From Streptomyces sp. TP-A0874 (GTDB taxonomy: Bacteria; Actinomycetota; Actinomycetes; Streptomycetales; Streptomycetaceae), in assembly GCF_001748085.1 (NCBI RefSeq), contig NZ_BBZK01000003.1, positions 124,001 to 188,000 of the forward strand: DNA of 64,000 nucleotides, written 5' to 3'. The position numbers and the translations under genes were made by a program. A model generated the notes under the pieces. That model made no database searches. It saw nothing but the letters and a program-made list of their open reading frames with translations, and was not told where the DNA came from. Of the stretch, positions 1,456 to 25,137 are shown in pieces. Positions within the stretch are counted from its first letter, which is position 1. Each line of letters starts with the position of its first letter.

Positions 1456-1459
<4 letters not shown>
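2..1459 (+). CDS. Type I polyketide synthase, C-terminal part (ER end-KR-ACP), 5' truncated
   Basis: The gene enters from the left edge; 485 residues are visible in a frame open from base 2. Residues 1-75 are the end of an NADPH enoylreductase. About 90-290 is a ketoreductase with a GGLTGIG nucleotide-binding loop, an LDD motif (B-type KR) and the catalytic Ser and Tyr around 226-243 (YSS, ANYAAA). The carrier domain lies near 360-450, with phosphopantetheine Ser in GIDSLGA near 393. The C-terminal 35 acidic residues look like a docking tail. An ER implies a reducing module, but its KS, AT and DH are outside the window. The stop overlaps the next start as ATGA, so translation is probably coupled. 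An internal ATG at 95 is not the real start because the upstream residues belong to the ER fold. Confidence 0.93.
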
Positions 1460-6932
<5,473 letters not shown>

Positions 6933-6936
<4 letters not shown>

Positions 6937-9900
6937 ACGTACCCCCACAGACCCCCGCCGCGGCGACCTCGGCTCCGGAGTCCCGGGGTGGCGCGCCGGA
7001 GCCGGCCGACGAGGAGTTCGACGGCATCGCCGTCATCGGCATGGCCGGCCGGTTCCCCGGTGCCCGCGACATAGGTGAGTTCTGGGCCAACCTGCGCTCC
7101 GGCAAGGAGAGCATCGTCGACGTCTCGGAGGAGCAGCTCGTCGGGGAGGGCGTCCCCGACGAGCTGCTTGGAGACCCGCACTACGTCAGGCGCGCGGCAC
7201 CCGTGGACGGGGTCGACGAGTTCGACGCGGAGTTCTTCGACCTCACTCCGCGGGCGGCACGCACCATGGACCCGCAGCAGCGGCTCCTCCTCCAGCTGAG
7301 CTGGCACGCCCTGGAGGACGCCGGGTACAACCCGCTGGGCTGCGACCGGTCGGTCGGCGTCTTCGCCACCGCGTCGGTCAGCTCCTACCTGCTGTACAAC
7401 CTGCTCTCCCGACAGGACACCAGAGCCCTGCTCGGCGCCGGGCTCAGCCTCGAACTCGTCCAACTCGTCGGCGGCAACGACCCGAACTTCGTCGCCACCC
7501 GCGTCGCCCACGCCTTGGACCTGAGGGGGCCTGCGGTCGGCGTCCAGACGGCCTGCTCCAGCGGCCTGGTGGCGGTGCACACGGCCTGCCAGAGCCTGCT
7601 GTCCGGGGAGTGCGACATGGCCCTTGCCGGCGGGGTGTCGATACGCGTCCCGCACAGGGCGGGATACCTGTACGACCCGGGCGCGATCATGTCGCCGGAC
7701 GGCAGTTGCCGTCCGTTCGACGAGCGGGCGGCCGGAACGGTCTTCGGTAGCGGCGGCGGGGCGCTTCTCCTCAAGCCCCTGGGCGACGCGCTCGCCGACG
7801 GCGACCCGGTCCACGCGGTCATCCGGGGATCGGCGATCAACAACGACGGCTCGCAGAAGATGGGCTTCACCGCTCCCAGCATCGACGGGCAGGCGCAGGT
7901 CGTCGCTGAGGCGCTCGCGGTCGCCGGGACGGCACCCGGAAGTATCGGTTACATCGAGGCGCACGGCACCGGCACCGCGCTCGGTGACCCCATCGAAGTG
8001 GCGGCGCTGGCCACCGCGTTCGACGGGGTCGGGCCGGGGCGGCACATCGCTCTCGGCTCGGTGAAGTCGAACATCGGGCACCTGGAGGTGGCCGCGGGCA
8101 TCGCCGGCCTGATCAAGACGGTGCTCTCCCTGAAGCAGCGGGAGCTGGCGCCGACCCTGCACTACTCCCGCCCCAACCCGGAACTCGCCCTGGAGAAGAC
8201 GCCGTTCTACATCGCTGACCAGCTGTCCCCCTGGACCGGTCCCGGTCCGCTGCGGGCCGGCGTCAGCGCCCTGGGAGTGGGGGGAACGAACGCCCACGTC
8301 GTCCTGGAGGAGGCGCCGCCGGTCCCGGCGGAACCCTCCCGCACCGGTCCCGCCGTGCTGTTGCTCAGCGCCCGGACCCCCGAACAGTTGTCCGAATCGG
8401 GCCGCCTGCTGGCGGACCGGCTCGACGGCGACAGCCCGCCGGCGCTCGTCGACGTCGCCGCGACCCTCGCCACGGGCCGGCATCCGCAGCAGCACCGCCG
8501 CGCGGTGGTGGCCAGCAGCCCCGAGACCGCGGCAGCCGCTCTGCGGACCGCCGGGCACCCGTCGCGACACGAGGGACGGGCCCTGCTGGAGACACCCGGA
8601 GTCGTCCTGCTCATGCCTGGGCAGGGAGCCCAGTACCCGGGTATGACCAAAGGGCTCCACCGCGCCGACAGCACTTACCGGCGCCACTTCGACTGGGCCG
8701 CCGAGGGCTTGTCCGACCTCCTCGGCCTCGACGTCCGAGCGGCCGTCCTGGACGGCGACGAGGACGCGCTGCGCCGCACCGACCTCGCCCAGGCCGCGCT
8801 GTTCTCGGTGGAGTACGCGCTGGCCAGCCGGCTCGCGGAGCACGGCATCCATCCCACCGCGCTCGCCGGCCACAGCGTCGGCGAATACACCGCCGCCCTG
8901 CTGGCCGGTGTGTTCTCGCCGGAGGACGCGTTGCGGGTGGTGGCCGCCCGCGGTGCGCTGATGCACGCCGCACCCCCTGGCGCGATGCTCACCGTCGGCC
9001 TCCCGGAGCAGGCCGCCCGCGAGGCCGTCGCCGGGACCGGTCTGGAGGTCGCGGCCGTCAACGAACCCGGCCACACGGTGGTGGCCGGCCCGGAGGCGGC
9101 CGCCGGAGAGCTGACGGAGCGACTCGCGGCTCGGGGAGTGTCCGTACGGCGCCTGCACACCGCGCACGCCTTCCACACCGCCGCCCTGGACCCGGCGGCC
9201 GGTCGGTTCGCCGACCGCATGGCCGAAGTCGCCCTGCACGTGCCCCGGATCCCTCTGCTGTCCGCCACCACCGGCGACTGGATGACCGACGACGAGGCCC
9301 GCGACCCAGGCCGGTGGGCACGGCAGATCCGGGTCCCGGTCCGGTTCTCCGACCTGCTCGCCACGCTGCTGGGCGAACCCCGACAGGTCCTGGTGGAATG
9401 CGGGCCGGGCCGCGCCCTCACCACCTTCGCCCGGCGTAACCCCGGTTGGGGCGACGGGCACCGGGCGCTGCGCCTGGTGCGCCATCCGCGGGAGGAACGC
9501 GACGACCACGAGACGTACCTGCTGGGGCTCGGCGCCCTGTGGACCGCGGGGGTGGACCCGGATTGGCAGGGCCCGGAGGGTGGCCCCGCGGGGCGGCGCG
9601 TGTCGCTGCCCGGCTACCCCTTCCGGCGCGACCGCCACTGGATCACCCCGATCTCCACCGACCTCCCCACCGGCTCGTGGGAGGCGGCAGCCTCCCACGA
9701 CCGGTCGGCGGCGCCCGCCGACCCGCCGGCCGAAGCCGGTGGGACCCCCGTCGACCGCGCCGTACGGCTGATCAGCACCATCTGGACCGAGACACTCGGC
9801 GTCCCTGACGTCGGGGAGCACGACAACTTCTTCGACCTCGGCGGTGACTCCGTCGTCGCCGTGCAGGTGGCCTCCCGGGCCTCGCGCGGTGGTCTGTCGA

Positions 9901-11399
9901 TGACGCCCCAGGACATGTTCCGGCACCAGACCGTGCGGGCCCTGGCGACCGCCCTGGCGGAGACCAGCGGCGGGGAGGACGACGCCGTCGGCACCGCCTC
10001 GACGGACACCCCGCCGCTCACCCCGACCCAGCAGTGGATCGCCGAACACCCGGGCGGGCGCCTGGCGGAGTTCACGGTGCCGCTGCTGCTCGACATCGGG
10101 CCGGACGTGGCCGCCGAGGTGGTCCGGGAGGCGGTCGGAGCCGTCGTCGCACACCACGAGGCGCTCCGCCTCCGCCTGGAGCGCCGCGACGGCCTGTGGC
10201 AGCAGCGCATCGAGCCCGCAGGCGACTTCGACGTCCCCACCATCCCGCTCCCCGGCGGGCTCGCCGCGGTCGGCGCGACCATCGCCGACCTGGGCCGGGA
10301 CCTGCTGGGGCGGTCGGGGCCGCTGCTGAGGGCAGCCATCCTGGAGCCGGTTTCCGAGGGGCCGCGCCGGCTGGCCCTGGTGATGCACCACTTCTGTGTG
10401 GACAACGCCTCCGAACGGATCCTGCTCGAAGACCTCGCCACCGCATGCGGCCAGCTCATGGAAGGCCGGCCGGTCCGGCTGCCCGAGGTGGCCACCGAGT
10501 GGTCTGCCTGGGCGCGGTGGGTAGCCGGTCTGGCGGCCGCGCCCGAGGTGCTCGCCGAGCGCGGCGAGTGGCTGGAGCTGCTGCGAGCGGACGCCGCCGT
10601 CGGCCTGCCCACTCGGTCCACGTCGCGGGAGGGGGCCACCCGCGACGTCCGCCTCGCCTCGACCGAGCTCGACCAGGAGACGGTCGAGGCGCTGACCCGG
10701 CTCCAGCGCGAGCGACGCGCCCGCATGGAGGAGTTCCTGTTGGCCGCCGTGGCGGTGGCCGTCACCGAGGCGACCGGCGAGGAACGCGCGCTGCTGGATG
10801 TGGAGGGGCACGGGCGGGCAGCGCTGCCCGCCGGCATGGACCTCAGCCGCACCATGGGTACCTGCACCACGCTCCATCCGGTCACCGTGGAGACCGGGCG
10901 CAGGGGGATGACCGGCGCCGTCGACTCCGCCCGGCGAGCGATCCGGTCGACGCCCCGCGAGGGGCTGGGGTACGGCGTGCTGCGGACGCTGCACGCGCCG
11001 TCCGCACGGCTGCTGGACGGCCTGCCGCGACCGGACCTGCTGGTGACCTACCTCGGCACCGTCACCTACGACGCGGTCGCCGAACTCGCCGGCGGGCCGC
11101 TGCGGGCCTCGACCGCGGCGGAGCTGTCAGCGCTCGCCGTGCCGGGCTGTCTGCTGCACGGCACGGAACTGCGGGCCTACGTCCACCACGGCCGGCTCCA
11201 CCTGGACTGGTGGTTCGACGCCGGCCGGTACGCGCCCGAGGTGGTGGCAGCCGCGCTCGACCGGGCGGCGAGCGCACTGAGCACCCTCTCCCAGGACGCC
11301 GCGGCCGCCCCGGACGCCGCCCCCGGCAGTACCCGCTGGGCGGACGTCAACCAGGACGAATTCCGGATGCTGTTCGGCGAGCAGCACCGCGACATGTGA
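6933..11399 (+). CDS. Non-reducing PKS module with C-terminal epimerisation-like domain (KS-AT-T-E*)
   Basis: 1488 residues from GTG, with GGAGGA just upstream and the start overlapping the previous TGA. KS covers about 30-455, with Cys near 208 (TACSSG). AT is about 555-830, with GHSVGE and HAFH near 745, which predicts malonyl-CoA. There is no KR, DH or ER, so the beta-keto group should survive. The carrier Ser is in GGDSVVAV near 970. From about 1020 to the end the chain resembles an NRPS condensation/epimerisation domain. It has HHFCVDN where active domains have HHxxxDG, EGHGR as in epimerisation motif E4, then YGVLR and a TYLG motif. The last residues (DEFRMLFGEQ) could act as a communication tail to the next protein, whose C domain begins directly. 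Whether the terminal domain is catalytic, a docking platform or a relic cannot be told. Confidence 0.9.
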
Positions 11400-11412
11400 G
11401 GACGGACCATCC

Positions 11413-14400
11413 ATGACTGCCCATGATGTCGAGGACATCTACGTACTCTCCCCGATGCAGGAAGGGCTCCTGTTCTACACCCTGCAGAACCCGCGCAGCT
11501 CGATGTACGCGCAACAACTCGCCCACACCTACGTCGGTGACCTGGACGAGGAGGCGCTGCGATCTGCCTGGCAGGTGGTGGTCGGCAGGCACCCGGTGCT
11601 GCGCAGCTCCTTCGTCTGGGAACGCCTCGACAAGCCACTGCAGATGGTCCACCGGGAAGCACCGGTGGAGTTCGAGACGCTCGACTGGAGCGGGCTCTCC
11701 GCCGAGGAACTGGTGGAGCGCGAACGGCGTCTGCTGCGGGACGACCGCGAGCGCGGCTTCGACCTGGCCGCCCCGCCGCTGATGCGCTTCTACCTGGCGC
11801 GGCTGGACGACCGGCGGCACCGTTTCGTGGTCAGCGTTCACCACCTCGTCCTGGACGGCTGGTCCACCGGGGTCGTCCTCAAGGAGGTCGCCGCCGCCTA
11901 CACCGCCATGCGCGAGGGCAAGCCCGTCGACCTGCCCTCGGCGCGGCCCTTCCGGGCCTATGTGGACTGGTTGCGCGCGAAGGACCCGGACAGCGCGGAG
12001 GCCTACTGGCGGCGCGAGCTCAAGGGGGTCACCGGGCCGACCCCGCTCCCCGTGGCGGACGCCGCGCACCGCGCGGGGCTCGGCGAGCAGCAGGTCGCGG
12101 CCGTCGAACTCGGCGCACGGGAGAGCTCGCGCCTGACCGACCTGCTCCGGGAGCGCCGCCTGACGCTCAACACCCTGGTGCAGGCGGCGTGGGCGCTGCT
12201 GCTCTCCCGCTACGCCGGTACGCCCGAGGCGGTCTTCGGCACCGTCTCCTCCGGCCGTCCTCCCGAGCTTGAGGGCTCCGAGGAGATGGTCGGCCTCTTC
12301 GTCAACACGCTGCCCATCCGGGTCCGGGTCGACCCCGCAGCACACGTGGGCGAGTGGCTCGACGAGGTGCAGGCGAAGTCGGTCGCGGCCCGCGCGCACG
12401 AGCACGTACCGCTCACCCGCATCCAGGAATGGAGCGACGTACCGCACGGCACGGAGCTCTTCGAGAGCGTCCAGGTGGTGCAGAACGCGCTCGACCTGTC
12501 GTTGCTGTGGGAGCGGTTCGCGGACCTGGAGGTTGCCGACCCCGTCTACTTCACCCGGACCAGCTTCCCGCTCACGCTGACCGTGGTGCCCGGTGACCGC
12601 ATCCTGCTGCGGGCGATGTACGACGCCTCGTGGCTGCCGGACACGATGGCCGGCCGGCTGCTCGGACACCTGAAAACCCTCCTGGGCGAGCTGGCGGGCG
12701 ACCCCGGGCGACGGTTGGCCGACCTGCCGATGCTCACCCCGGAGGAGTGGACCGCACTGGTCGGCCCGGGCGGCGGGCGAGCGGACGAGGCCCCGTGGCC
12801 GGTCGGGCAGGAGTGCGCGGAGCACGGGGCACACCGGCCGGACGCCGTCGCGGTGACACACGGCGCGCGCTCGCTCAGCTGGGGGCAACTGGACACCGGG
12901 GTGGAGCGGTTGGCCGCCCGGCTGCGGGAGCGGGGCGCCGCGGAGAACACCGTGGTCGCACTCTGCCTGCGGGATCCCGTCGACGCTCTGACCGCCCTCC
13001 TCGCCGTATGGCGCGCCGGGGCCGCCCCGGCGCCCCTGGACCCGGCGCGCCCGGCCGCCGACCTGCTCCACCTGGCCGAGGCCGCACGCCCCGGCCTGAT
13101 GGTGGCCGATCCCGAGACCGCCGAGGCCCTCGCCGACACCGGCCACGAACTGCTGCTGCTCGACCCGGAGGCTGGCGCCCTCCCGGCGCCCGTCGACTCC
13201 CCGGTGCGGCCCCCCGCCCCGGTGGAGACGGCGCTCGCCTACGTCGCCTTCACCTCCGGCGCCGAGGACGGACCGAAAGCGGTGCCGCTCGACCACCGTT
13301 CCCTGACCGCGACGGGCGGCGTGCACCGGGAAGAGCTCCACCTCAGGCCGGACGACACCGTCCTGCTCCACGCCCCCGCCGACTCCTACCTGTACCTGCT
13401 CACCGTGCTGGCCGGACTGCGCGCCGGGGCCCGGTTCGTCCTGCCCACCGGTTCGGCCGCGGAGTCCTCCTCGGCCGTCACCGCGGCGATCGAGGCCCAG
13501 GTGGCCGAGTACGGCGTCAGCTGCGCCGTCCTCACCCCCACGCTGCTCGGCGCCCTGGACCCCGAGGGCCCGGCTGGGGCCCTGCGTACCGTGATCGTCA
13601 CCGGGGAACACTGCCCGGCGCCCGTGGCCGCCGCCTGGGCCCGGGACACCGGCCGGCGGGTGTTCTCGCTGTACGGATCAGCCGAGACGGCCGGTGCGGC
13701 GGTGCTCGGCCGGGTCACCCCGGAGGGCGCCACCGAGGGGCGGCCGGTCGGCGGGCGCCGCGCCTACGTCCTCGGCGCGGGCGGCAGCCCGCTGCCGTGC
13801 GGCGTCGCCGGGGAACTCCACCTGGCCGGCCCCGGTCTCTCCCCCGGCTACCTCGACCGTCCGGCGTTGACCGTCGAGCGCTACCGACCCGACCCCTTCT
13901 TCCAGGACGCTCCGGAGAGGATGTACCGCACCGGGGACCTGGCCCGGTGGACCGAGTCAGGCGGACTGGAGGTGCTCGGCCGGGTCGGCGAGAGGCTGAC
14001 TGTCGCCGGTCGCGCGGTGGATCCGGCGGCCGTGGCGGAACTCCTCCGCACCCACCCGGCGGTGGCCGCCTGCACGGTCGGTGGGGACGACGACGGCCTC
14101 ACGGCGTACGTCGTACCGGACCACGAGGGATCCTCCGGAGCGGACGCCGACGAGCAGGTGCACCAGTGGCGCCAGCTCTACGAGCACACCTACGCCGACC
14201 AGAACGGCACGGGCGAGGCCGAGTTCAACACCGTGGGCTGGAACAGCAGCTTCACCGGTGGCGCTATCCCCGAGGACGAGATGCGTGAGTGGCGCACCGC
14301 GACTCTGGAGCAGTTGCGCGGACTGCGGGCCTCCAGCGTCCTTGAGATCGGCTGCGGCACGGGCATGTTCCTGCTGCCGCTGGCCCGGGAGTGCGAGGAG

Positions 14401-16614
14401 TACTGGGCCACCGACCTGTCACCCGCGGCCCTCGACTACGTGCGCGAGCAACTCCGGGCGCCCGCCTACGCGGACAGCCGGGTCACCCTGCGGGAGCAGC
14501 AGGCGGACGACCTCACCGGGATCCCCTCCGGCCGCTTCGACCTGGTCGTCATCAACTCCGTCGTCCAGTACTTCCCGGACGAGGCGTACCTGCGGCGGGT
14601 GCTCGACGGGGCCGTCCGCGCGCTGCGGCCGGGCGGTCGGATCTTCGTCGGCGACGTCCGGAACCTCGACACCCTCCGCGCCATGCACCTGTCGATGCAG
14701 CTCGCCGACCGTCCGGCCGACCACCCGGCACCGGAACTGTGGCTCGCCGCGCGTTCCCGCGCCCGGCTGGAGGAGGAGCTCGTACTCAGCCCCGGGTTCT
14801 TCCGCGGTTACGCCGCGCAGCTGGCCCCCGGCGCGGTCGCGCGGGTCGCCGCCAAGCGCGGACGGGCCCGCAACGAACTGACCTGCTACCGGTACGACGT
14901 GCTCATCGAACCGGCCGGGGGCGAGTCGGGCCGGGCCGGCCGGGTGCTCGACTGGGCCTCGGACATCGGGGAGCCCGACGCGTTGGCGGGGCTGCTGGCG
15001 GAGGAGCCGGACACCCTGCTGATCGGCGGTGTCCCCGACGCCCGGGTGCGGGACATGGTCGCCGCCGTGGAACTGCTGGACCGCGACGCAGCCCCGGCGA
15101 CCGCGGGCGGCCTGGCCGAACGGGTCTCCCGGGAGGCCGGTGTGGACCCGGAAGCCCTCCACGAGGCCGCCGAACGCGCCGGCTATCAGGTGGACCTGCT
15201 GCTGGGCGAGGCGCCCGCCACCCTGGACGCCCTCTTCGTGCGGAACGGCTCGCCTGCCGCAGCCCCCGAGGCCCGGGCCGGCCAGTGGCGTGCCCACGCC
15301 GAGGGCCTGCCGCCGGTGGAGGGGCGGGTGGCCAACGACCCGTTGGCCCAACGCCATGACACCAGGCTCCTCGGCGAACTGCAGACCCTGGCCGAACGGC
15401 GACTGCCGTCCCACGCGGTACCGGGCGACTACCTGGTCGTCGCCGACCTGCCGCTCACCCGCGACGGGCGGACCGCTCGGGGGCCGCTCGGCTCCCTGCG
15501 TGGCTCGGGCCGGGGCCCGGGGCGGGAGATCACCGCCCCGCGGGACACCACGGAACTGGTGGTGGCCCGGGTCTGGGAGGAGGTGCTCGGGATCCGACCC
15601 GTCGGTGTCACCGACGACTTCTTCTCGCTCGGCGGGCACTCACTCGTGGCGATGCGGGTGATCTCCCGCCTACAGCGGCATTTCAACCGCGACATCGACC
15701 TGGCCGTGCTCCTGAACCAGCCCACGGTGGCCGAACTGGCGGCCGTCCTGAGAGCGGAGGCCGAAGGCCCGGGGCGCTCGTCCGTGGTGACCCTGCAAGC
15801 CGCCGGTGAGGAACCGCCGCTGTTCCTCGTCCACCCCTCCGGGGGCAACCTGCTCGTCTACCAGTTCCTCGCGGAACGACTCGGCGCGGACACCCCGGTC
15901 CACATGCTGGAGACGCCCGCACTGCACCGCTTCGGCACGGTCGAGGAACTGGCCGCCCACTACGCGGAGGCCATCCGGCAGTTCGTTCCGCACGGCCCCT
16001 ACAGGCTCGGCGGCCTCTCCTTCGGCGGACTGGTGGCCTTCGAAGTCGCCCGGCAGCTCACCGAGGCGGGTGAGAAGGTCGAGGCGGTGACGATGTTCGA
16101 ATCCTCGCTGGCCGGCGCCGTGCCCAAGGACGTCACGCCGGAGGACCTGCTCGCCTACCGCACCGCGCACTTCGCCCACGTCTTCGAGCTGGTCTTCGGC
16201 AAGGAGATCCCGCTCACCGAGGAGGAACTGCGCGGTCTCGCCCCCGACGAGCAGTTGGAGATGCTCTACCAGCGGGTCGACGCGTCCCTCGGGGGCGGCC
16301 TCGGCATGGGCATCCTGCGGAGCACCGTCGAGGACGTACAGCGGGTCCGGGACATGATCCGCGCCTACCGGCCCGGTGACTACAGCGGTCCGGTGCACCT
16401 GTTCATCGGTCTCGAACCCATGCCGCCGCACCTCAACGACCCCGAGTTCTACCGGAGCGACCGGACGCTCGGCTGGGACGAGCACCTTCCGGACCTGCGG
16501 ATCGTGGACACCCCCGGGAACCACCTCACGCTGCTCAACCCACCGCACGTCGACACCCTCGCCGAGCGGATGCGGGAGATCACCGGCTCCGCACGGACCC
16601 GGGAGGCGCGATGA
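11413..16614 (+). CDS. NRPS C-A(degenerate)-NMT-PCP-TE, chain-terminating
   Basis: 1733 residues. The C domain (1-430) starts with [11 protein letters not shown] and carries an intact HHLVLDG near 143, so it can join the polyketide acyl chain to an amino acid. The A domain (from about 455) looks dead. A3 reads [11 protein letters not shown] instead of TSGSTGxPKGV, A8 reads [11 protein letters not shown] instead of GRxDxQVKIRG, and the A10 Lys is replaced (DGRTAR); only A7 (YRTGDL) is normal. An N-methyltransferase is inserted late in the A domain (about 910-1150) with VLEIGCGTG near 976, NSVVQYFP and GDVR, all typical of NRPS N-MTs. PCP Ser is in GGHSLVAM near 1407. The thioesterase (about 1460-1725) has GLSFGG near 1534. 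The likely role is N-methylated amino acid incorporation and release. The intact free A domain at 19410 is the best candidate to charge this PCP. Confidence 0.93.
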
Positions 16615-17426
16615 CCTTGCGCACCCACATAGCGGCCGAGCGGTCCGCCCGCTGGTTCCGGTGTTTCCGGCCCAGACCACAGGCCGCCGTCCTGCTCTAC
16701 GCGCTGCCGTTCGCCGGCGGCGGAGCGGCCTTCTACCGCGCCTGGGCCGATCGGCTGCCCGCCTCGGTGGAGCTCCGCGCCGTCCAGTTGCCCGGGCGGC
16801 AGGACAGGATGGCCGAGCCGCCGGCGGTCGACTGCGCGGCGCTCTGCCGCTCCCTCGCGTCCGCGCTGCGGGACGATCTGTCGGACCGGCCCTTCGCGCT
16901 GTTCGGGCACAGCATGGGAGCGCTGCTCTCCTTCGAGCTGGCTCGCGAACTGCGCCGCCTCGGCGAGAGAGCGCCGGTGGCGCTCGGCGTCTCCGGCTGG
17001 TCGTCGCCGCGCGACCGCCTCCCGCACGGTCGGTACACCACCCTGAGCGACGCGGAGTTCCTCACCGTGGTGCGACGTCTCGGCGGAATGCCGCAGGACG
17101 TGCTGGACGAGCCGGACCTGCTGAGCCTGGTGCTGCCCACGCTCCGTGCCGACTTCCAGGTGGTGGAGGGCTACAGCTACCGGGAGGAGCCGCCGCTCGA
17201 CCTGCCGATGTCGGTGTTCGGCGGCGTGTCCGACCCCTTCACGGAGCGTCAGGGGCTGGAGGGATGGCAGCAGGAGACCACCGGTCCGGTGACCGTCCGC
17301 CACTACCCCGGACGCCACTTCTACCTGACGGAGCACGCCGACGCCGTCGCCGGCGCGTTCCTGGCCGACCTCAGGGCCGCGCTCGCCGGCTCGAACCCGG
17401 CCCCGACCGAAGGAGGCCCGCGATGA
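16611..17426 (+). CDS. Type II (editing) thioesterase
   Basis: 271 residues, alpha/beta hydrolase. The nucleophile elbow is GHSMG near 103; the acid lies in the SDPF segment and the His in GRHFYL near the C terminus. Length and the opening [14 protein letters not shown] segment are typical of stand-alone thioesterases of PKS/NRPS clusters, which clear misprimed or stalled acyl groups from carrier domains. The ATG overlaps the NRPS stop (ATGA) and its own stop overlaps the next ATG, so it belongs to the same translationally coupled operon. Confidence 0.93.
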
Positions 17427-19000
17427 GCGACGACCTCGGCCCCGTCACCACCGCCGACCGTATCGAGGACTTCAAGCGGCGCCAGCGGGAAGCGGCGGAA
17501 GCCTCCTCCCCGGCGGCCGTCGAGAGGCAGCACGCCCGCGGGAAGCTGACCGCGCGGGAACGGATCACCGAACTCCTGGACGAGGGGTCCTTCGTCGAGT
17601 TCGACGCCCTGGCCCGGCACCGCTGCCACGGATTCGGCATGGAACAGCGGCGCCCGTACGGCGACGGCGTCATCACCGGCCACGGCACGGTGGGCGGGCG
17701 GAAGGTCTTCGTCTTCGCCCAGGACTTCACCGTGTTCGGGGGGAGTCTGGGCGAGGTGTACGGCGAGAAGATCGTCAAGGTGATGGACCTCGCCATCCGC
17801 ACCGGGTGCCCGATCATCGGCATCAACGACTCCGGCGGCGCCCGGATCCAGGAAGGCGTCGTCTCCCTCGCCTACTACGCGGAACTCGTCCGGCGCCATG
17901 TCGAGGCGTCGGGCGTCATCCCGCAGATCTCCCTGATGATGGGGCCGTGCGCGGGCGGAGCGGTGTACTCCCCGGCCATCACGGACTTCGTCGTCATGAC
18001 GGACCGCACCTCCCACATGTTCGTCACCGGACCGGACGTGCTGGAGACGGTCACGGGACAGGTGGTCAGCCACGAGGAGCTGGGCGGCGCCCACACCCAC
18101 AACACGGTGTCCGGCAACGCCCACTACCTGGCCGCCGACGAGAAGGAGGCCTTCGAGTACGTCCGGGACCTGCTCTCCTACCTGCCGTCCAACAACCTCG
18201 ACGACCCGCCGGTGTACGCCCCGGAGACCGATCCGCGGCAGGAGGCGGAGGCGCTGACGCTGGACGCCATCGTCCCCGACGACCCCAACCAGCCCTACGA
18301 CATGCACGAGGTCGTCTCACGCGTGGTGGACGGCGGCGAACTGCTGGAGGTGCAGCCGCTCTACGCCCCCAACATCATCTGCGGCCTGGCCCGGATCGAC
18401 GGCCGCACCGTCGGGGTGGTCGCCAACCAGCCGCTGCGGATGGCCGGCGTGCTGGACATCAACGCCAGTGAGAAGGCGGCGCGTTTCGTCCGTTTCTGCG
18501 ACGCCTTCAGCATCCCGATCCTGACCTTCGTCGACGTGCCGGGGTTCATGCCGGGCACCGAGCAGGAACGCATGGGCATCATCCGGCGCGGCGCCAAGCT
18601 GGTCTACGCGTACGCGGAGGCCAGTGTGCCGACCGTGACGGTGGTGACCCGCAAGGCGTTCGGCGGCGGATACGGGGTGATGGGCTCCAAACACCTGGGC
18701 ATCGACGTCAACTTCGCCTGGCCCACCGCGCAGATCGCCGTCATGGGCGGGGAGGGCGCCGTCCGGGTGTTGTACCGCCGCGCCATCGAGGGGGCCGAGG
18801 ACCCGGATGCGGAGAGCACCCGGCTGCGCCGGGAGTACGAGAAGGAGCTCTGCAACCCGTACATGGCCGCCGAACGCGGATACGTGGACGCGGTCATCCT
18901 CCCGTCCCAGACGCGTGAACAGGTGAAGGCCGCCCTGAGCACCCTGCGCACCAAACGGGTGACCGGACTTCCGAAGAAGCACGGAAACCTGCCGCTGTGA
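17423..19000 (+). CDS. Acyl-CoA carboxylase beta (carboxyltransferase) subunit
   Basis: 525 residues, AAGGAGG at 17409 before the ATG. It has the biotin-dependent carboxyltransferase fold: N-terminal half with GGARIQEG and [14 protein letters not shown]-terminal half with GFMPGTEQE and [15 protein letters not shown]. The enzyme transfers CO2 from biotin to an acyl-CoA to make a malonyl-type extender. At the position where propionyl-specific PccB proteins have Asp (GGAYDVMG) and acetyl-specific ones Ile, this protein has Gly (GGGYGVMG). From what is known of the family, a small residue there widens the acyl pocket, so a larger alkylmalonyl-CoA is possible; methylmalonyl-CoA is the conservative alternative. 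With the epsilon and alpha subunits nearby, the cluster carries its own complete carboxylase. Confidence 0.93.
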
Positions 19001-19311
19001 CCGCCGGAGGAGACATCGGCGGCGATCGGACCGGAGGGCCGCCGGTGCGGGCCCCCGGGGGCGCCGAGCCGTCACCGGTGGTGCCCCCGAACCACCTCGC
19101 CTCGGTGAACGTCGTGCGCGGCGACCCCACCCCAGAGGAACTGGCCGCCGTGATGGCGTGCCTGGTGGTGGCGTCCGCCGGTCGTCCCGCAGCCGACCGC
19201 GGGGTCGTGGCCGAGGCGTCCGGATGGACCCGCGCCGCACGTACGGGGCTGCTGCGGTCCACGCTGCTGCCCATGCGGGGCTGGCGCGGGGCCTCCGGCC
19301 CGGGACGTTGA
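18997..19311 (+). CDS. Acyl-CoA carboxylase epsilon subunit
   Basis: 104 residues from a GTG that overlaps the beta-subunit stop. The central [16 protein letters not shown] segment (about 31-46) is the hallmark of the small epsilon subunits of actinobacterial acyl-CoA carboxylases, which stimulate the alpha-beta complex. A Trp-containing C terminus (GWRGASG) also fits. The first 25 residues are Gly/Pro-rich linker. Its place directly behind the beta gene is the normal arrangement. Confidence 0.85.
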
Positions 19312-19409
19312 CCGCGCCCCGGCCGCTGCGCGGAGGACAGCCGGTGGACGGCCGCAGAACAACGACTCGATCCGGCTCCCCGGGAGCCGGAGGAAGGAAC
19401 TTCCCGATC

Positions 19410-20945
19410 ATGTCGGATGCGATGCCGGAGAGGGCGACCGGCTTCCGTCGCCTGGACGAACTGTTCCGCCAACAGGTCGCCGAACACCCCGACGCGGTGG
19501 CGGTGGTCGACGCGGGCCGGTCGGTGAGCTACCGCGAGCTCTGGGAGGCCGCCGGCGGTGTCGCGGAAGAACTCGCCGGCGCGGGGGTGGAACCCGGCGG
19601 CCTGGTCGGACTGAAGCTCGGGCGGGGCTGGCGAGTGGTCGCGGGGATTCTGGGCATCTGGCGCCACGGCTCCGGTTACGTCCCCATCGACCCGCGCTAT
19701 CCGCAGGCCCGCCAGGAGTACATCGTCGCGGACGTCGGGCTCCGGCACACGGTCGTCGAGGGGGAGGGCGGCGGACTGCTGGTCACCGCGGGGGGCGGTG
19801 CGGCCGGGCCGGCGGCGCCCGTCCCGGACGACACCGCCTATGTGATCCACACATCGGGTTCGACCGGCGATCCCAAGGGGGTCGTCATCCGCCACAGCCA
19901 TGTGCTGGCCCTCCTGGAGGCGTGCTCGAAGACGTACGAGGTGGGGGCGGACGACGTGTGGTCGTTCTTCCACTCGCACAGCTTCGACTTCAGCGTCTGG
20001 GAGATCTGGGGGGCCCTGCTGTCGGGTGGCAGGGTCGCGGTGGTCCCGCAGGAGGCGGCCACCGACTCCCGGCGCTTCGCCACCTTCCTGGCCGAACAGC
20101 GGGTCACCGTGCTCAGCCAGGTCCCCTCCGTCTTCGGCTTCCTGGTGCGCGCGCTCTCGGCCGACCCCGTGCCCCTGCCGGACCTGCGGTACGTGGTCTT
20201 CGGGGGAGAGGCGATCACTCCGCGGACCTTGCTGAACTGGTACCGGCTCGGTGTCGCGCCCCGGGCGGAACTGTTCAACATGTACGGCATCACGGAGATC
20301 ACCGTGCACGCCACGGTGGCCAGGCTCACTCCGGAGGCGCTGCGGGCCCCCTCCGTGGGGACCCCCATCGGGGAGCCGCTGCCCCATCTCAGCATCGCGC
20401 TGATGGAGGACGGGCGCCCGGTGCCGCCCGGCGTCCCCGGGGAGATGCACATCGCGGGGCCGAGTGTGGCGGAGGGGTACCTGGGGCGGCCCGAGCTCAC
20501 CTCCCGGCGGTTCGTCCGCCACCAGGCGCTGGGCGAGGACCGGCTCTGGTACCGCAGCGGGGACTACGCGATCGAACGGTCCGACGGCGGCTTCGAATAC
20601 CTGGGGCGGCGCGACGACCAGGTGAAGATCCGCGGGTTCCGGATCGAACTCGGCGAGATCGAGGCGGTCCTCGCCGACCAGCCGGAGGTGCGCGAGTGCG
20701 CCGTGGTGGTGACCGACTCGCCCAACGGCGATCCGGTGCTGGTCGGTTGCTTCCTCCCCGAGGCCTCCGCCGACGCGATGGGGAGTGGGGAGTTGGCGAG
20801 CACGCTCGGCCACCGGCTGGCGGGCCTTCTGCCCCGGCACCTGGTCCCCGCCCGACTGCTCCAGGTCGCCCGACTGCCGCTGACCCTGTCGGGGAAGCTC
20901 GACCGCGCTGCCCTCGCCCGCCGGGCTTCCGAAAGCGGTCACTGA
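19410..20945 (+). CDS. Free-standing NRPS adenylation domain, threonine-like code
   Basis: 511 residues with no carrier or condensation domain. All core motifs are intact: A3 HTSGSTGDPKGV, A5 NMYGITE, A7 YRSGDY, A8 GRRDDQVKIRGFRIELGEIE and A10 LSGKLDR with its catalytic Lys. Hand alignment to the GrsA-Phe pocket gives the code DFWSVGMVHK, close to the classical threonine code DFWNIGMVHK. It should therefore activate L-Thr or a close analogue (hydroxylated or dehydrated). It follows GGAGGAAGGA at 19389-19398. Because the A domain inside the NRPS at 11413 has lost its ATP-binding and catalytic motifs, this protein is proposed to acylate that PCP in trans. Loading an upstream carrier outside the window is the alternative. 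No MbtH-like partner is present here. Confidence 0.9.
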   Translation: MSDAMPERATGFRRLDELFRQQVAEHPDAVAVVDAGRSVSYRELWEAAGGVAEELAGAGVEPGGLVGLKLGRGWRVVAGILGIWRHGSGYVPIDPRYPQARQEYIVADVGLRHTVVEGEGGGLLVTAGGGAAGPAAPVPDDTAYVIHTSGSTGDPKGVVIRHSHVLALLEACSKTYEVGADDVWSFFHSHSFDFSVWEIWGALLSGGRVAVVPQEAATDSRRFATFLAEQRVTVLSQVPSVFGFLVRALSADPVPLPDLRYVVFGGEAITPRTLLNWYRLGVAPRAELFNMYGITEITVHATVARLTPEALRAPSVGTPIGEPLPHLSIALMEDGRPVPPGVPGEMHIAGPSVAEGYLGRPELTSRRFVRHQALGEDRLWYRSGDYAIERSDGGFEYLGRRDDQVKIRGFRIELGEIEAVLADQPEVRECAVVVTDSPNGDPVLVGCFLPEASADAMGSGELASTLGHRLAGLLPRHLVPARLLQVARLPLTLSGKLDRAALARRASESGH

Positions 20946-21000: not shown

Positions 21001-22773
21001 GTGCGCAAGGTACTCATCGCCAACCGTGGCGAGATCGCGGTCCGGGTGGCCCGGGCCTGCCGGGACGCCGGCATCGCGAGCGTGGCCGTGTACGCGGACC
21101 CGGACCGGGACGCCGTCCACGTCCGTGCCGCGGACGAGTCGTTCGCTCTCGGCGGCGGCACCCCCGCCGACAGCTACCTCGACATCGACAAGGTGTTGCG
21201 GGCCGCGAGCGACTCCGGGGCGGATGCGATCCACCCCGGCTACGGGTTCCTGTCGGAGAACGCCGACTTCGCCGAGGCCGTCCTCGACGCCGGGTTGACC
21301 TGGATCGGGCCGCCGCCACAGGCCATCAGGGACCTGGGCGACAAGGTCGCCGCCCGGCGTCTCGCGCAGCGCGCCGGCGCTCCGCTGGTGGCGGGCACCC
21401 CGGACCCGGTCTCCGGCGCGGCGGAGGCGGTGGCCTTCGCCGAGGAGCACGGGTTGCCGATCGCCATCAAGGCCGCCTTCGGCGGCGGGGGGCGGGGGCT
21501 GAAGGTCGCTCACACCCTGGAGGAGGTCCCCGAACTGTACGAGTCCGCGGTCCGCGAGGCGGTGGCCTCCTTCGGGCGCGGCGAGTGCTTCGTGGAGCGG
21601 TACCTGACCAGACCGCGGCATGTGGAGACGCAGTGCCTGGCCGACGCCCACGGCAACGTGGTCGTGGTCTCCACCCGGGACTGCTCCCTGCAGCGGCGCC
21701 ACCAGAAGCTGGTGGAGGAGGCGCCGGCCCCCTTCCTCACCGCCGCGCAGACCGCCGAGTTGTACCGGGCCTCGAAGGCCGTCCTCCGGGAGGCCGGCTA
21801 CGTCGGCGCCGGCACCGTCGAGTTCCTCGTCGCGGTGGACGGCACGATCTCCTTCCTGGAGGTCAACACCCGGTTGCAGGTGGAGCATCCGGTCACCGAG
21901 GAGGTCACCGGCATCGATCTGGTGCGTGAGCAGTTCCGCATCGCCGACGGCGCGGAACTCGGCTATGACGACCCGGTCCACCGCGGTCACTCCTTCGAGT
22001 TCCGGATCAACGGTGAGGATCCGGGCCGCGGCTTCCTGCCGGCCCCCGGTACGGTCACCCGGTTCTCCCCGCCGACCGGTCCGGGCGTGCGGCTGGACAG
22101 TGGTGTCGAGTCCGGCAGCGTCATCGGCCCGGCCTGGGACTCGCTGCTGGCCAAGCTGGTGGTGACCGGCCGGACCCGTACCGAGGCCTTGCAACGCGCC
22201 GCCCGCGCCTTGGAGGAGTTCACCGTCGAGGGCATGGCGACCGCGCTCCCGTTCCATCGCGCGGTGGTGCGGGATCCGGCGTTCGCCCCCGAACTCAACG
22301 GATCTGACGCGCCGTTCACGGTGCACACCCGTTGGATCGAGACCGAGTTCGCCAACGACATCGAGCCGTTCACCGCCCCGGCGGAGACGGAGGCGGGGGA
22401 GGGGCCGGGACGCGAGACGGTCGTCGTCGAGGTGGCCGGCAAGCGCCTTGAGGTCTCACTGCCCGCCAGCTTCGGGGCGTCGTCGGGCCGCGGCGGGCCG
22501 CCGGCCGACGCCCGGAGGAAGCGCCGCTCGGTTCGCCGCTCCGGCTCCGGCGCGGGCGGCGACATCCTCTCCTCGCCGATGCAGGGAACCATCGTCAAGG
22601 TCCTCGTCGAGGACGGCCAGGAGGTCGAGGAGGGTGACCTGGTGGTCGTCCTGGAGGCGATGAAGATGGAGCAGCCGCTGAACGCCCACCGGAGCGGCAC
22701 GGTCAAGGGCCTGAGCGCCCGAGCCGGCGCATCGGTCGCGTCGGGAGCGGCGATCTGCGAGATCAGGGACTGA
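21001..22773 (+). CDS. Acyl-CoA carboxylase alpha subunit (biotin carboxylase + biotin carrier)
   Basis: 590 residues starting at GTG with [19 protein letters not shown], the invariant opening of biotin carboxylases. ATP-grasp features include the glycine-rich loop FGGGGRG and [15 protein letters not shown]. The C-terminal biotinyl domain (about 515-590) has the acceptor Lys in EAMKME. It carboxylates biotin with ATP and bicarbonate, and the beta subunit at 17423 then moves the carboxyl to acyl-CoA. Between the two domains is a variable linker of Arg/Lys/Gly. It is separated from the beta and epsilon genes by the free A domain, an unusual order, but it still reads in the same direction. Confidence 0.94.
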
Positions 22774-22818: not shown

Positions 22819-22892
22819 AATGGCATCCTGTCTAAATGGTTAGTGAGTATCAAGAATGGCCTCAGGGCCCGACCGTCGGCGAGGAGGCGGAC

Positions 22893-24458
22893 ATGGACCG
22901 CGGCGATGCCGTGAAGGCGCCTTACCCGAAGCGCTGGTGGGCACTGAGTGCCCTGGTGCTGAGCCTGCTGGTCATCGGGTTGGACATCACGATCCTGAAC
23001 GTGGCCCTACCGACCCTCGCCACGGACCTGGGAGCCACCAACCAGGATCTGCAGTGGATCGCCGACTCGTACACGCTCGTCTTCGCGGGGCTGCTGCTGC
23101 CGGCCGGGGTGCTGGGCGACCGCTTCGGTCGTAAGAAGCTGATCATCATCGGCCTGCTGGTGTTCGGCGCCGCCTCGGCGCTCTGCGCCTGGTCGCCGGG
23201 GGCCGCCGAACTCATCTGGGCCCGCGGTCTGCTGGGCGTCGGTGCGGCGATCGTCACACCGCTGAGCCTGTCGATCCTGCCCGCGATGTTCCCGAAGGAG
23301 GAGCGCGGCAAGGCGATCGCCATCTGGTCGACGGGCACGGTCATCGGCCTGCCGCTGGGGCCGATCCTCGGCGGTTACCTGCTTGAGCACTACTGGTGGG
23401 GTTCGGTCTTCCTGATCAACGTGCCGGTGCTCGTCGTGGGGGTGCTCTGCGCGGCGGTTCTGCTGCCGGAGTCCCGAGACGAGACCAGGCCGCGCGTCGA
23501 CCTGGTCGGCGGGGTGCTGTCCACCGTCGGTCTGTGCAGCCTGCTCTACGGGATCATCGAGGGTGCCGACCGGGGCTGGGGTGACGGTGTCATCCTTGGT
23601 TCCATCACGGTCGGTCTGCTGTTCCTGGTGGCGTTCGTCCTCTGGGAGCAGCGTGCCCGGGAGGCCCTGATCGACCTCGCGCTCTTCTGGAACCGGAACT
23701 TCTCCGTCGCCACCATCGTTCTGACCGTTCTCTCCTTCGTCCTGTACGGGATCCTGTTCGTCACCCCGCAGTACCTGCAGGTGGTGCTGGGCACGTCCGC
23801 GCTCGGCACCGGGGTGAGACTCCTCCCGCTGGTGCTGGCCTACATGGTGGGCGCGGGCGTCAGCGACGCCCTGGTGAAGTTGGTCGGGGTGCGCTGGGTG
23901 CTGGTGGGCGGGCTCGGGGTCCTCGGCGTCGGTATGGCGGTCATGGCGGGCATCTCGTCGGACAGCGGATACACCTACGCGGCCCTGTCGTTCGTCGTCC
24001 TGGGGCTGGGGCTCGGCATCTCGCTCCCGCCGTCGGTGGACCTCGTGATGGACGCCCTGCCGGCGGACCAGACCGGGCGGGGCACCGCGCTGACCACCGC
24101 GCTGCGGCAGGTGGGCGGCGCCCTGGGCATCGCCGTCCTGGGCAGCATGCTCGCCTCGACCTACTCGAGCGGGGTCAGGGAGGTGGTGAGCGGGATGCCG
24201 GCCGAGGTCCGCGGCCCGGTGGAGGACTCGGTGGCCGCGGCCGCCGCCGTCGCCGACAAAATGGGGGCCGCGGGCGAACCGCTGCGGAGTGTCGCTTACA
24301 AGGCCTTCACAGATGGCATGGAATCTCTTTCGCTAGCCTGTAGTACTATGGCTTTCCTTGGAGCCTTGACGGTCTTCGTGTTGCTATCCGAGAAAAGCGG
24401 CAGCGAGGCCGAAGCCAGCCGAGCGGAGGAGGTCGCTCCGGTGGATTCAGGCACCTAG
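22893..24458 (+). CDS. MFS multidrug-type exporter (DHA2 / EmrB-QacA family, 14 TM)
   Basis: 521 residues. The first helix carries LLVIGLDITILNVALPTL, the signature of 14-helix drug:H+ antiporters. Motif A GDRFGRKK follows helix 2 and motif C-like GPILGG lies in helix 5. GAGGAGG at 22881-22887 supports the ATG at 22893; an in-frame ATG at 22836 would add 19 residues but lacks a ribosome site. The likely job is self-resistance and export of the cluster product. It is followed by a strong hairpin and then tetR. Confidence 0.9.
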   Translation: MDRGDAVKAPYPKRWWALSALVLSLLVIGLDITILNVALPTLATDLGATNQDLQWIADSYTLVFAGLLLPAGVLGDRFGRKKLIIIGLLVFGAASALCAWSPGAAELIWARGLLGVGAAIVTPLSLSILPAMFPKEERGKAIAIWSTGTVIGLPLGPILGGYLLEHYWWGSVFLINVPVLVVGVLCAAVLLPESRDETRPRVDLVGGVLSTVGLCSLLYGIIEGADRGWGDGVILGSITVGLLFLVAFVLWEQRAREALIDLALFWNRNFSVATIVLTVLSFVLYGILFVTPQYLQVVLGTSALGTGVRLLPLVLAYMVGAGVSDALVKLVGVRWVLVGGLGVLGVGMAVMAGISSDSGYTYAALSFVVLGLGLGISLPPSVDLVMDALPADQTGRGTALTTALRQVGGALGIAVLGSMLASTYSSGVREVVSGMPAEVRGPVEDSVAAAAAVADKMGAAGEPLRSVAYKAFTDGMESLSLACSTMAFLGALTVFVLLSEKSGSEAEASRAEEVAPVDSGT

Positions 24459-24534: not shown

Positions 24535-25137
24535 ATGTCGTCAGCCCCTGGTCTGCGCGAACGCAAGAGAATGCGGGTCCGCATGACTATCAGGCAGGAG
24601 GCTCTCCGGCTGTTTACGGAAAGGGGCTACGACAAGACCACGGTCGAGCAGATCGCCGAAGCGGCAGAAGTCGCGAATACCACGTTCTTTCGATACTTTC
24701 CATCCAAGGAGCATGTCGTCTTCGCTGATGAATACGATGTGCCGCTGAGAGAGGCGATCACTTCCCGCCCGGAGGACGAGCCCCTCCTGGTAGCGGTCCG
24801 CAACGGCATTACCGAGTTCTGTCGGACGAGCCTCGTCGCGGACCAAGAGGAATTGCTGACGCGCCTGCAGTTGATCGACCGGGTGCCCGCCCTCCGTTCC
24901 AGGCTCCCGCAGCACCAGCGCGACGAGTCGGACTTCATGGCGGACTTCCTCGCGCGCAGGATGGGGTGCGAGCCGGACGACCTGGTGGTCCGGGTGCTGG
25001 TGGGCGTGCTGGGCTCGATGGTGGCGGAGGTGCTGCTGGCCTGGGCGAGGGCGGGTGGGGAGCAGCCGCTCGAAGACCTGTTCGCGAAGCTCTTCGATGA
25101 GATGTCCCAGGTCTTCTCCGAGGTTGGCGCCGGGTGA
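24535..25137 (+). CDS. TetR-family regulator of the cluster exporter
   Basis: 200 residues. The N-terminal helix-turn-helix region contains RLFTERGYDKTTVEQIAEAAEVANTTFFRYFPSKEHVV cut over 30-67, the normal TetR recognition layout. The remaining helices form the ligand domain. GAGAGG precedes the ATG at a good distance. Its first 300 bases are less GC-rich than the PKS genes. Location beside the exporter and two near-identical palindromes (22804, 25199) suggest it represses the exporter and is relieved by the product or an intermediate. Confidence 0.88.
   Translation: MSSAPGLRERKRMRVRMTIRQEALRLFTERGYDKTTVEQIAEAAEVANTTFFRYFPSKEHVVFADEYDVPLREAITSRPEDEPLLVAVRNGITEFCRTSLVADQEELLTRLQLIDRVPALRSRLPQHQRDESDFMADFLARRMGCEPDDLVVRVLVGVLGSMVAEVLLAWARAGGEQPLEDLFAKLFDEMSQVFSEVGAG

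What the first reader, a model, noticed from the sequence alone, without database searches (positions are those of the whole stretch)
11413..20945. Dead A domain in the NRPS apparently replaced by a free A domain in trans
The NRPS A domain has lost the P-loop ([11 protein letters not shown]), the A8 Asp/Lys ([11 protein letters not shown]) and the A10 Lys, while C, N-MT, PCP and TE remain intact. Five kilobases downstream an intact free A domain carries the code DFWSVGMVHK, near threonine. A decayed cis domain kept as a scaffold for the N-methyltransferase, with loading by a trans protein, would be an uncommon design.
Basis: partly seen in the sequence, partly recalled or inferred. Interest (0 to 1): 0.8.

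Follow-up and report, generated by a model that had tools for sequence, protein, structure and literature searches.

The report
Dead loading domain, likely trans-loaded module
In a bacterial antibiotic-type assembly line the built-in amino-acid loader of the last module has lost its catalytic residues but still carries a methylating domain, and a separate intact loader encoded nearby, probably for threonine, most likely does its job; this is a modest new variant of a known arrangement.

Summary
The terminal NRPS (11413-16614; C-A*-nMT-A_C-PCP-TE) has an A domain that lost P-loop residues, Asp235 (now Tyr), the A5 Thr, the A8 Asp/Gln/Lys/Arg and the A10 Lys (now Arg). The 19 related A-nMT didomains examined keep these, one being unreadable at A10. 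A* keeps 40 of 57 relative-invariant columns (0.70; controls 0.877-1.0); its nMT keeps 37 of 42 (0.88; controls 0.894-1.0). The frame is open. A motif-intact free A without a T domain (19410-20945) lies in the same gene run. Its code DFWSVGMVHK is in print for gamma-Cl-Thr; in the pocket region its best single-domain solved relative is the L-Thr enzyme Thr1. Trans-loading of the NRPS PCP with Thr, then N-methylation, is the best explanation, but pairing rests on elimination and no step is shown. No orthologous cluster was found. Complementation of a dead A in trans is already documented (albicidin; bripiodionen, also Lys-to-Arg with loss of an Asp, in a terminal PKS-NRPS module). What differs here is the nested nMT and a T-less trans loader. 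New variant of a known kind.

The parts
11413..16614 (+). Terminal NRPS gene, C-A*-nMT-A_C-PCP-TE, 1733 aa
   Evidence: ORF; Pfam; GC3 0.89-0.93 in each of seven segments
12790..14130 (+). Catalytically degenerate A domain core (A*), residues 460-906
   Evidence: Lost A3, Asp235, A5 Thr and A8 residues against 19 relatives
14200..14922 (+). nMT domain nested between A8 and A9 (residues about 930-1170), motif [10 protein letters not shown]
   Evidence: Pfam methyltransferases; 37 of 42 invariant columns kept; 5wmm_A is the best solved match of the A*-nMT region
15358..15528 (+). A_C remnant with A9-A10 (residues about 1316-1372); A10 Lys replaced by Arg (K1353R)
15562..15747 (+). PCP with LGGHSL, proposed acceptor of trans-loaded Thr
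15817..16611 (+). Thioesterase domain, GLSFGG
16611..17426 (+). Type II thioesterase gene, start overlapping the NRPS stop
17423..19000 (+). Acyl-CoA carboxylase carboxyltransferase subunit
   Evidence: PF01039, 647.9 bits; likely start
19410..20945 (+). Free-standing A domain without T, code DFWSVGMVHK, predicted L-Thr
   Evidence: code in PMC12283262
21001..22773 (+). Biotin carboxylase with biotin-carrier domain
22836..24458 (+). MFS transporter
24535..25137 (+). TetR-family regulator
6933..11399 (+). Last PKS module, KS-AT-T(LGGDS)-E-like, directly upstream of the NRPS; likely GTG start at 6933
   Evidence: Pfam and TIGR01720; motifs; start region
1456..6936 (+). PKS module KS-AT-DH-KR-ACP (three more PKS genes lie upstream; the third ends at 1459)

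Best explanation
The terminal NRPS module works as C-(A* as inert host of the nMT)-PCP-TE. Its own A domain cannot make an adenylate. The free A domain encoded in the same gene run activates L-threonine (or a near relative) and loads it directly, with no T domain of its own, onto the phosphopantetheine arm of the NRPS PCP. The nMT nested in A* then N-methylates the PCP-bound threonine. The C domain joins it to the chain delivered by the KS-AT-T-E-like PKS protein, and the TE releases the product. Shown by sequence: loss of the A* catalytic residues, presence of the nMT, PCP, TE and C motifs, an intact free A with a Thr-type code, and no free-standing carrier found in the cluster. Inferred: every catalytic step, the pairing of the free A with this PCP, the amino acid, and the scaffold role of A*.
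For: Several catalytic positions lost together in A*, kept in 19 of 19 relatives at A3-A8 (S or T at 617) and in 18 of 18 readable relatives at A10. A* keeps 40 of 57 invariant columns (0.70) against leave-one-out controls of 0.877-1.0. GC3 of 0.89-0.93 in each segment and no frame break. Free A intact with a Thr-type code; in the pocket region its best single-domain solved relative is 5n9w, which papers identify as the L-Thr-activating free-standing Thr1. Six PF00550 matches in the cluster: five PKS carriers and the NRPS PCP. Precedents for complementation in trans: BpdC/BpdD, albicidin, WS9326A.
Against: No orthologous cluster was found, so co-inheritance of dead A and free A could not be tested. 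No MbtH gene in the cluster; the one match in the genome is on contig 12. The genome has 37 PF00501 matches in all, some of which could load the PCP. The A-to-nMT identity ratio of NRPS A* (0.840) lies inside the control range 0.766-1.026, so overall divergence of A* is not exceptional. Its nMT (0.88) also lies slightly below its own control minimum of 0.894. In albicidin and bripiodionen the trans protein carries its own T; this one does not.
Confidence: 0.7

Rival explanations
1. The free A serves another carrier, for example the E-type T domain (LGGDS) of the PKS5 protein or a carrier of another cluster, and the NRPS PCP is loaded by an A domain from elsewhere in the genome.
For: PKS5 ends in a T-E pair of NRPS type; the genome has 37 PF00501 matches, several in short frames, and 30 PF00550 matches.
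Against: PKS5 has its own AT with GHSVGE and a KS with TACSSG, so its T should receive an extender unit. The free A is encoded in the same gene run as the NRPS, and no free-standing carrier was found in the cluster.
Confidence: 0.12
2. The NRPS module is skipped or used only for release: no amino acid is loaded, the TE releases the polyketide, and the nMT is idle.
For: A* is dead by motif.
Against: C, nMT, PCP and TE motifs are present and the nMT keeps 37 of 42 invariant columns, which an idle module would not be expected to keep. An intact free A lies nearby.
Confidence: 0.08
3. A* is still active despite the unusual motifs, for example with an acid other than an alpha-amino acid, since Asp235 is gone while the A3 Lys, A5 Glu and A7 Asp remain.
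For: A3 Lys, A5 Tyr-Gly and Glu, A6 Gly-Glu and A7 YRTGD are kept; the A10 change is Lys to Arg.
Against: P-loop residues, hinge Asp, A8 Lys and A10 Lys are lost together. In BpdC, with natural D552P and K792R, changing R792 to Ala left production unaffected.
Confidence: 0.07
4. The cluster is decaying and makes nothing.
For: No orthologous cluster found in the samples searched.
Against: The large ORFs of the cluster are open with high GC3, and within the NRPS the losses are concentrated in A*.
Confidence: 0.05

Closest known systems
Bripiodionen BpdC/BpdD (PMC10956176; abstract and parts 1-3 of 4 of the text read)
   Same: Terminal NRPS module of a PKS-NRPS line; in-line A dead with Lys-to-Arg and loss of an essential Asp; an intact A encoded in trans in the cluster.
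   Different: BpdD is an A-T didomain, so T-to-T transfer is proposed; BpdC is C-A-T with no nMT listed; a discrete Dieckmann cyclase replaces the TE; the substrate is Asn; an MbtH-like gene is in the cluster.
Albicidin inactive A with the alb04 A-T protein in trans (review PMC8949500, section 4.1 read)
   Same: Inactive A kept in the main line, complemented by a stand-alone protein.
   Different: The trans protein has an extra domain and a T domain; no nMT is mentioned in the section read.
WS9326A trans A domains Cal22Thr/Cal23Asn (PMC7539972, abstract and passages)
   Same: A Thr-specific A encoded downstream of the modular NRPS genes; need shown by knockout, substrate by in vitro assay.
   Different: The receiving module is listed as A-less rather than carrying a dead A; an MbtH-like protein is needed; PMC10956176 describes the WS9326A donors as A-T didomains.
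Thr1 of the 4-chlorothreonine pathway (5N9W/5N9X; passages of PMC6668435 and PMC11253843)
   Same: Free-standing L-Thr A domain; best single-domain solved relative of the free A in the pocket region.
   Different: Thr1 loads a free-standing carrier (Thr2) for halogenation; no free-standing carrier and no PhyH match lie in this cluster.
TioS A-nMT (PDB 5wmm; insertion site from a passage of PMC8795117; that 5wmm is TioS is recalled)
   Same: nMT nested between A8 and A9; best solved match to the A*-nMT region (366.8 bits).
   Different: Described as an interrupted A domain that N-methylates; here the A half has lost its catalytic residues.
Yersiniabactin HMWP1 Cy-MT-PCP-TE (recalled, not read)
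   Same: An MT-containing terminal module loaded from another protein.
   Different: No relic A domain there; the MT is a C-methyltransferase.

Membership tests
Trans-complemented inactive A domain, A-T type (albicidin/bripiodionen) | In-line A domain with catalytic losses | tested here: met
Trans-complemented inactive A domain, A-T type (albicidin/bripiodionen) | Intact stand-alone A in the same cluster | tested here: met
Trans-complemented inactive A domain, A-T type (albicidin/bripiodionen) | Stand-alone protein carries its own T domain | tested here: not met
   No PF00550 match in the free A ORF
Trans-complemented inactive A domain, A-T type (albicidin/bripiodionen) | Trans protein needed for product | not testable with these tools
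   Needs knockout or in vitro loading
Active interrupted A-nMT didomain (TioS type) | nMT inserted between A8 and A9 | tested here: met
Active interrupted A-nMT didomain (TioS type) | Catalytic core motifs of A intact | tested here: not met
Free-standing Thr A domain (Thr1 type) | Free-standing A with Thr-type code | tested here: met
Free-standing Thr A domain (Thr1 type) | Partner free-standing carrier nearby | tested here: not met
   only assembly-line carriers matched in the cluster
Free-standing Thr A domain (Thr1 type) | PhyH-type halogenase nearby (that the Thr halogenase belongs to this family is recalled) | tested here: not met
   The one PhyH match in the genome lies about 811 kb away on the same contig
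Free-standing Thr A domain (Thr1 type) | Adenylates L-Thr | not testable with these tools
   Needs ATP-PPi exchange

The most novel reading that the evidence does not exclude
An interrupted A-nMT domain has been converted into a pure methyltransferase platform: the adenylation core is kept only as structure, and a T-less free A charges the PCP directly with threonine, making a C-[A*]nMT-PCP-TE module. With the T-E-like end of the preceding PKS, the PKS-NRPS junction would carry NRPS remnants on both sides, reused for methylation and docking rather than for loading and epimerisation.
Probability: 0.5. Interest if true: 0.5.

Novelty: new variant of a known kind. Interest (0 to 1): 0.42.

Why it matters
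If true, it separates the adenylating and methylating jobs of an interrupted A domain in nature. It would show that the nMT needs only the folded A shell, and that a T-less A can charge a methylating terminal module. That is a usable design rule for changing the amino acid at an N-methylating module, and a warning for genome mining that reads specificity from the in-line A domain.

Tried and rejected
Searches for an orthologous cluster found none: a genome-contig scan with A*-nMT gave 3 weak hits; A* in 392 genomes of the genus (own included) at 1e-80 and in 374 of the class (own included) at 1e-72 matched the own genome only. The two samples overlap, and only 4 first-look candidates per genome were scored. 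The genome-contig scan used six exact eight-residue patterns from one sequence, so only close relatives could appear. A tblastn of the NRPS against plasmid records gave nothing at 60% identity or more.

Two genomes of the genus with a related free A (52% and 46%, 3 of 392 with the own one) are different loci: L029 has a T-less A beside a NAD_binding_4 gene and an MFS gene at a contig end; L030 has a free A beside a class III aminotransferase. Two with a KS-T-E-like protein (L048, L050) are different clusters.

Considered and rejected: general fast divergence of A* as proof of decay. The A-to-nMT identity ratio of A* (0.840) lies inside the control range 0.766-1.026, so the case rests on catalytic columns. 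The key-position table has its A5, A8 and A10 rows off by one residue; one search corrects A5 and A8, and its row labelled 'A10 G 1353' is in fact the A10 Lys column. The 19 controls are the best-scoring other loci returned, not a random sample, and some are close to each other (L010 and L011).

Chlorination of Thr was considered because the code is printed for gamma-Cl-Thr; no PhyH match lies in the cluster.

KtzN/KtzH of kutzneride (recalled as a T-less free A loading a module with a truncated A) was considered as a precedent. One paper search for both names found nothing; another listed one review that I did not open. It is not used as evidence.

Full report
Setting. The cluster is a run of + strand genes beginning 15.2 kb upstream of the window: PKS1 (KS-AT-KR-ACP, with about 540 residues before the KR without a Pfam match), PKS2 (KS-AT-KR-ACP), PKS3 (KS-AT-DH-ER and an ACP detected; its last part was not scanned with Pfam), PKS4 (KS-AT-DH-KR-ACP), PKS5 (KS-AT-T-E-like), the NRPS, a type II thioesterase, a carboxyltransferase, the free A domain, a biotin carboxylase with biotin-carrier domain, an MFS transporter and a TetR regulator. 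The NRPS stop overlaps the next start, and the likely start of the free A follows a GGAGGAAGGA stretch.

The dead domain. Pfam finds an AMP-binding match in the NRPS at residues 470-814 covering profile positions 3-384 of 384, methyltransferase matches around 955-1093 and a short AMP-binding_C remnant at 1319-1352. The comparison set is the 19 other loci returned, out of matches in 38 other genomes of the 100 searched. Against them A* differs at the P-loop (S617A, T618E, G619D, G623A), at Asp235 (D659Y), at A5 (T757A), at A8 (D859G, Q861R, K863T, R865A) and at A10 (K1353R). The relatives carry the standard residue 19 of 19 times (S or T at 617), except that one has a gap at A10, where 18 of 18 carry Lys. 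Of 57 columns invariant in the relatives' A core, A* keeps 40 (0.70); left out one at a time, the relatives keep 0.877 to 1.0. Of 42 nMT columns A*-nMT keeps 37 (0.88), four of the five changes being Y/F, L/M or L/I; the controls are 0.894 to 1.0, so the nMT is slightly below its control range. In the A_C and linker part it keeps 9 of 14; there one truncated relative scores 0.143 and the next lowest 0.875. Against a reading of general decay, the plain A-to-nMT identity ratio of A* is within the control range. GC3 is 0.89-0.93 in each of seven segments and there is no frame break, so the reading frame is maintained.

The free domain. It has A3 TSGSTGDPKG, A5 NMYGITE, A8 GRRDDQVKIRG and A10 SGK, passes the TIGR01733 cut-off (384.8 against 317.4 bits) and has no PP-binding match. 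The pocket code, read by eye from the columns, is DFWSVGMVHK. [quoted passage not shown]). In the pocket region the best solved relative by a single domain is 5n9w (263.0 bits), then CytC1 (223.7); linear gramicidin synthase is listed first (273.0) only with two domains summed, its better one scoring 154.8. 5N9W is Thr1, a free-standing L-Thr-activating enzyme that loads a free-standing carrier (passages of PMC6668435 and PMC11253843).

Who is the carrier? Thirty PF00550 matches were found in the genome; the six in the cluster are five PKS carriers and the NRPS PCP, with no free-standing carrier. Each PKS protein has an AT, so the NRPS PCP is the only cluster carrier without a working loader. 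That is the main argument for the pairing, and it is an argument by elimination. The genome has 37 AMP-binding matches in all. The one MbtH match is on contig 12, so whether the free A needs one is open.

Mechanism. The free A activates Thr and loads the NRPS PCP; the nMT nested in A* methylates it; C couples it to the polyketide; TE releases. All of these steps are inferred. A scaffold role for A* fits its open frame and full-length profile match, but no structure was predicted.

What is known. A review describes complementation of an inactive in-line A domain by a stand-alone A-T protein for albicidin, and names ramoplanin and enduracidin as similar (PMC8949500, section 4.1). In bripiodionen the terminal C-A-T protein BpdC has natural D552P and K792R changes, R792A has no effect, and the A-T protein BpdD is proposed to supply Asn (PMC10956176, parts 1-3 of 4). 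WS9326A uses a Thr-specific trans A with an A-less module (PMC7539972, abstract and passages). I did not find a dead A-nMT with a T-less trans A in print; the ten searches were and 71 of an open-licence library that lacks most subscription journals.

Verdict. Observation confirmed; interpretation likely but unproven; new variant of a known kind; interest 0.42.

Noticed in passing
window 6933-11399: The PKS module before the NRPS ends in an NRPS-type T (LGGDS) and an epimerisation-like domain with HHFCVDN and VEGHGR. Its AT has HAFH (recalled as malonyl-type), so there would be no alpha stereocentre to invert; it may be a docking remnant.
   Followed up: partly
L048:13198-18312 and L050:12649-18396: Two genomes of the genus have KS, a short AT match, T (LGGDS) and a C/E-like domain in one protein; regular expressions for HHxxxD and EGHG found nothing in them, so the E-like part looks dead there.
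   Followed up: partly
L029:11256-13733: A second T-less A domain (52% identical to the free A) beside a NAD_binding_4 gene at a contig end; by eye its code reads DVWSVAMVHK.
   Followed up: partly
window 19078-19311: A short ORF between carboxyltransferase and free A containing [13 protein letters not shown], by recall like an acyl-CoA carboxylase epsilon subunit; Pfam was run only on another frame of this stretch.
   Followed up: partly
window 17423-19000 and 21001-22773: Carboxyltransferase and biotin carboxylase/carrier genes inside the cluster, probably for extender supply.
   Followed up: no
L030:9150-12072: In another genome of the genus a free A domain (46% identical) sits next to a class III aminotransferase.
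   Followed up: partly
L001:2892-3686: A lytic polysaccharide monooxygenase gene just upstream of the cluster.
   Followed up: no
G000: The genome (5.1 Mb, 99.84% complete) is smaller than the same-genus genomes listed (5.3-12.4 Mb).
   Followed up: no
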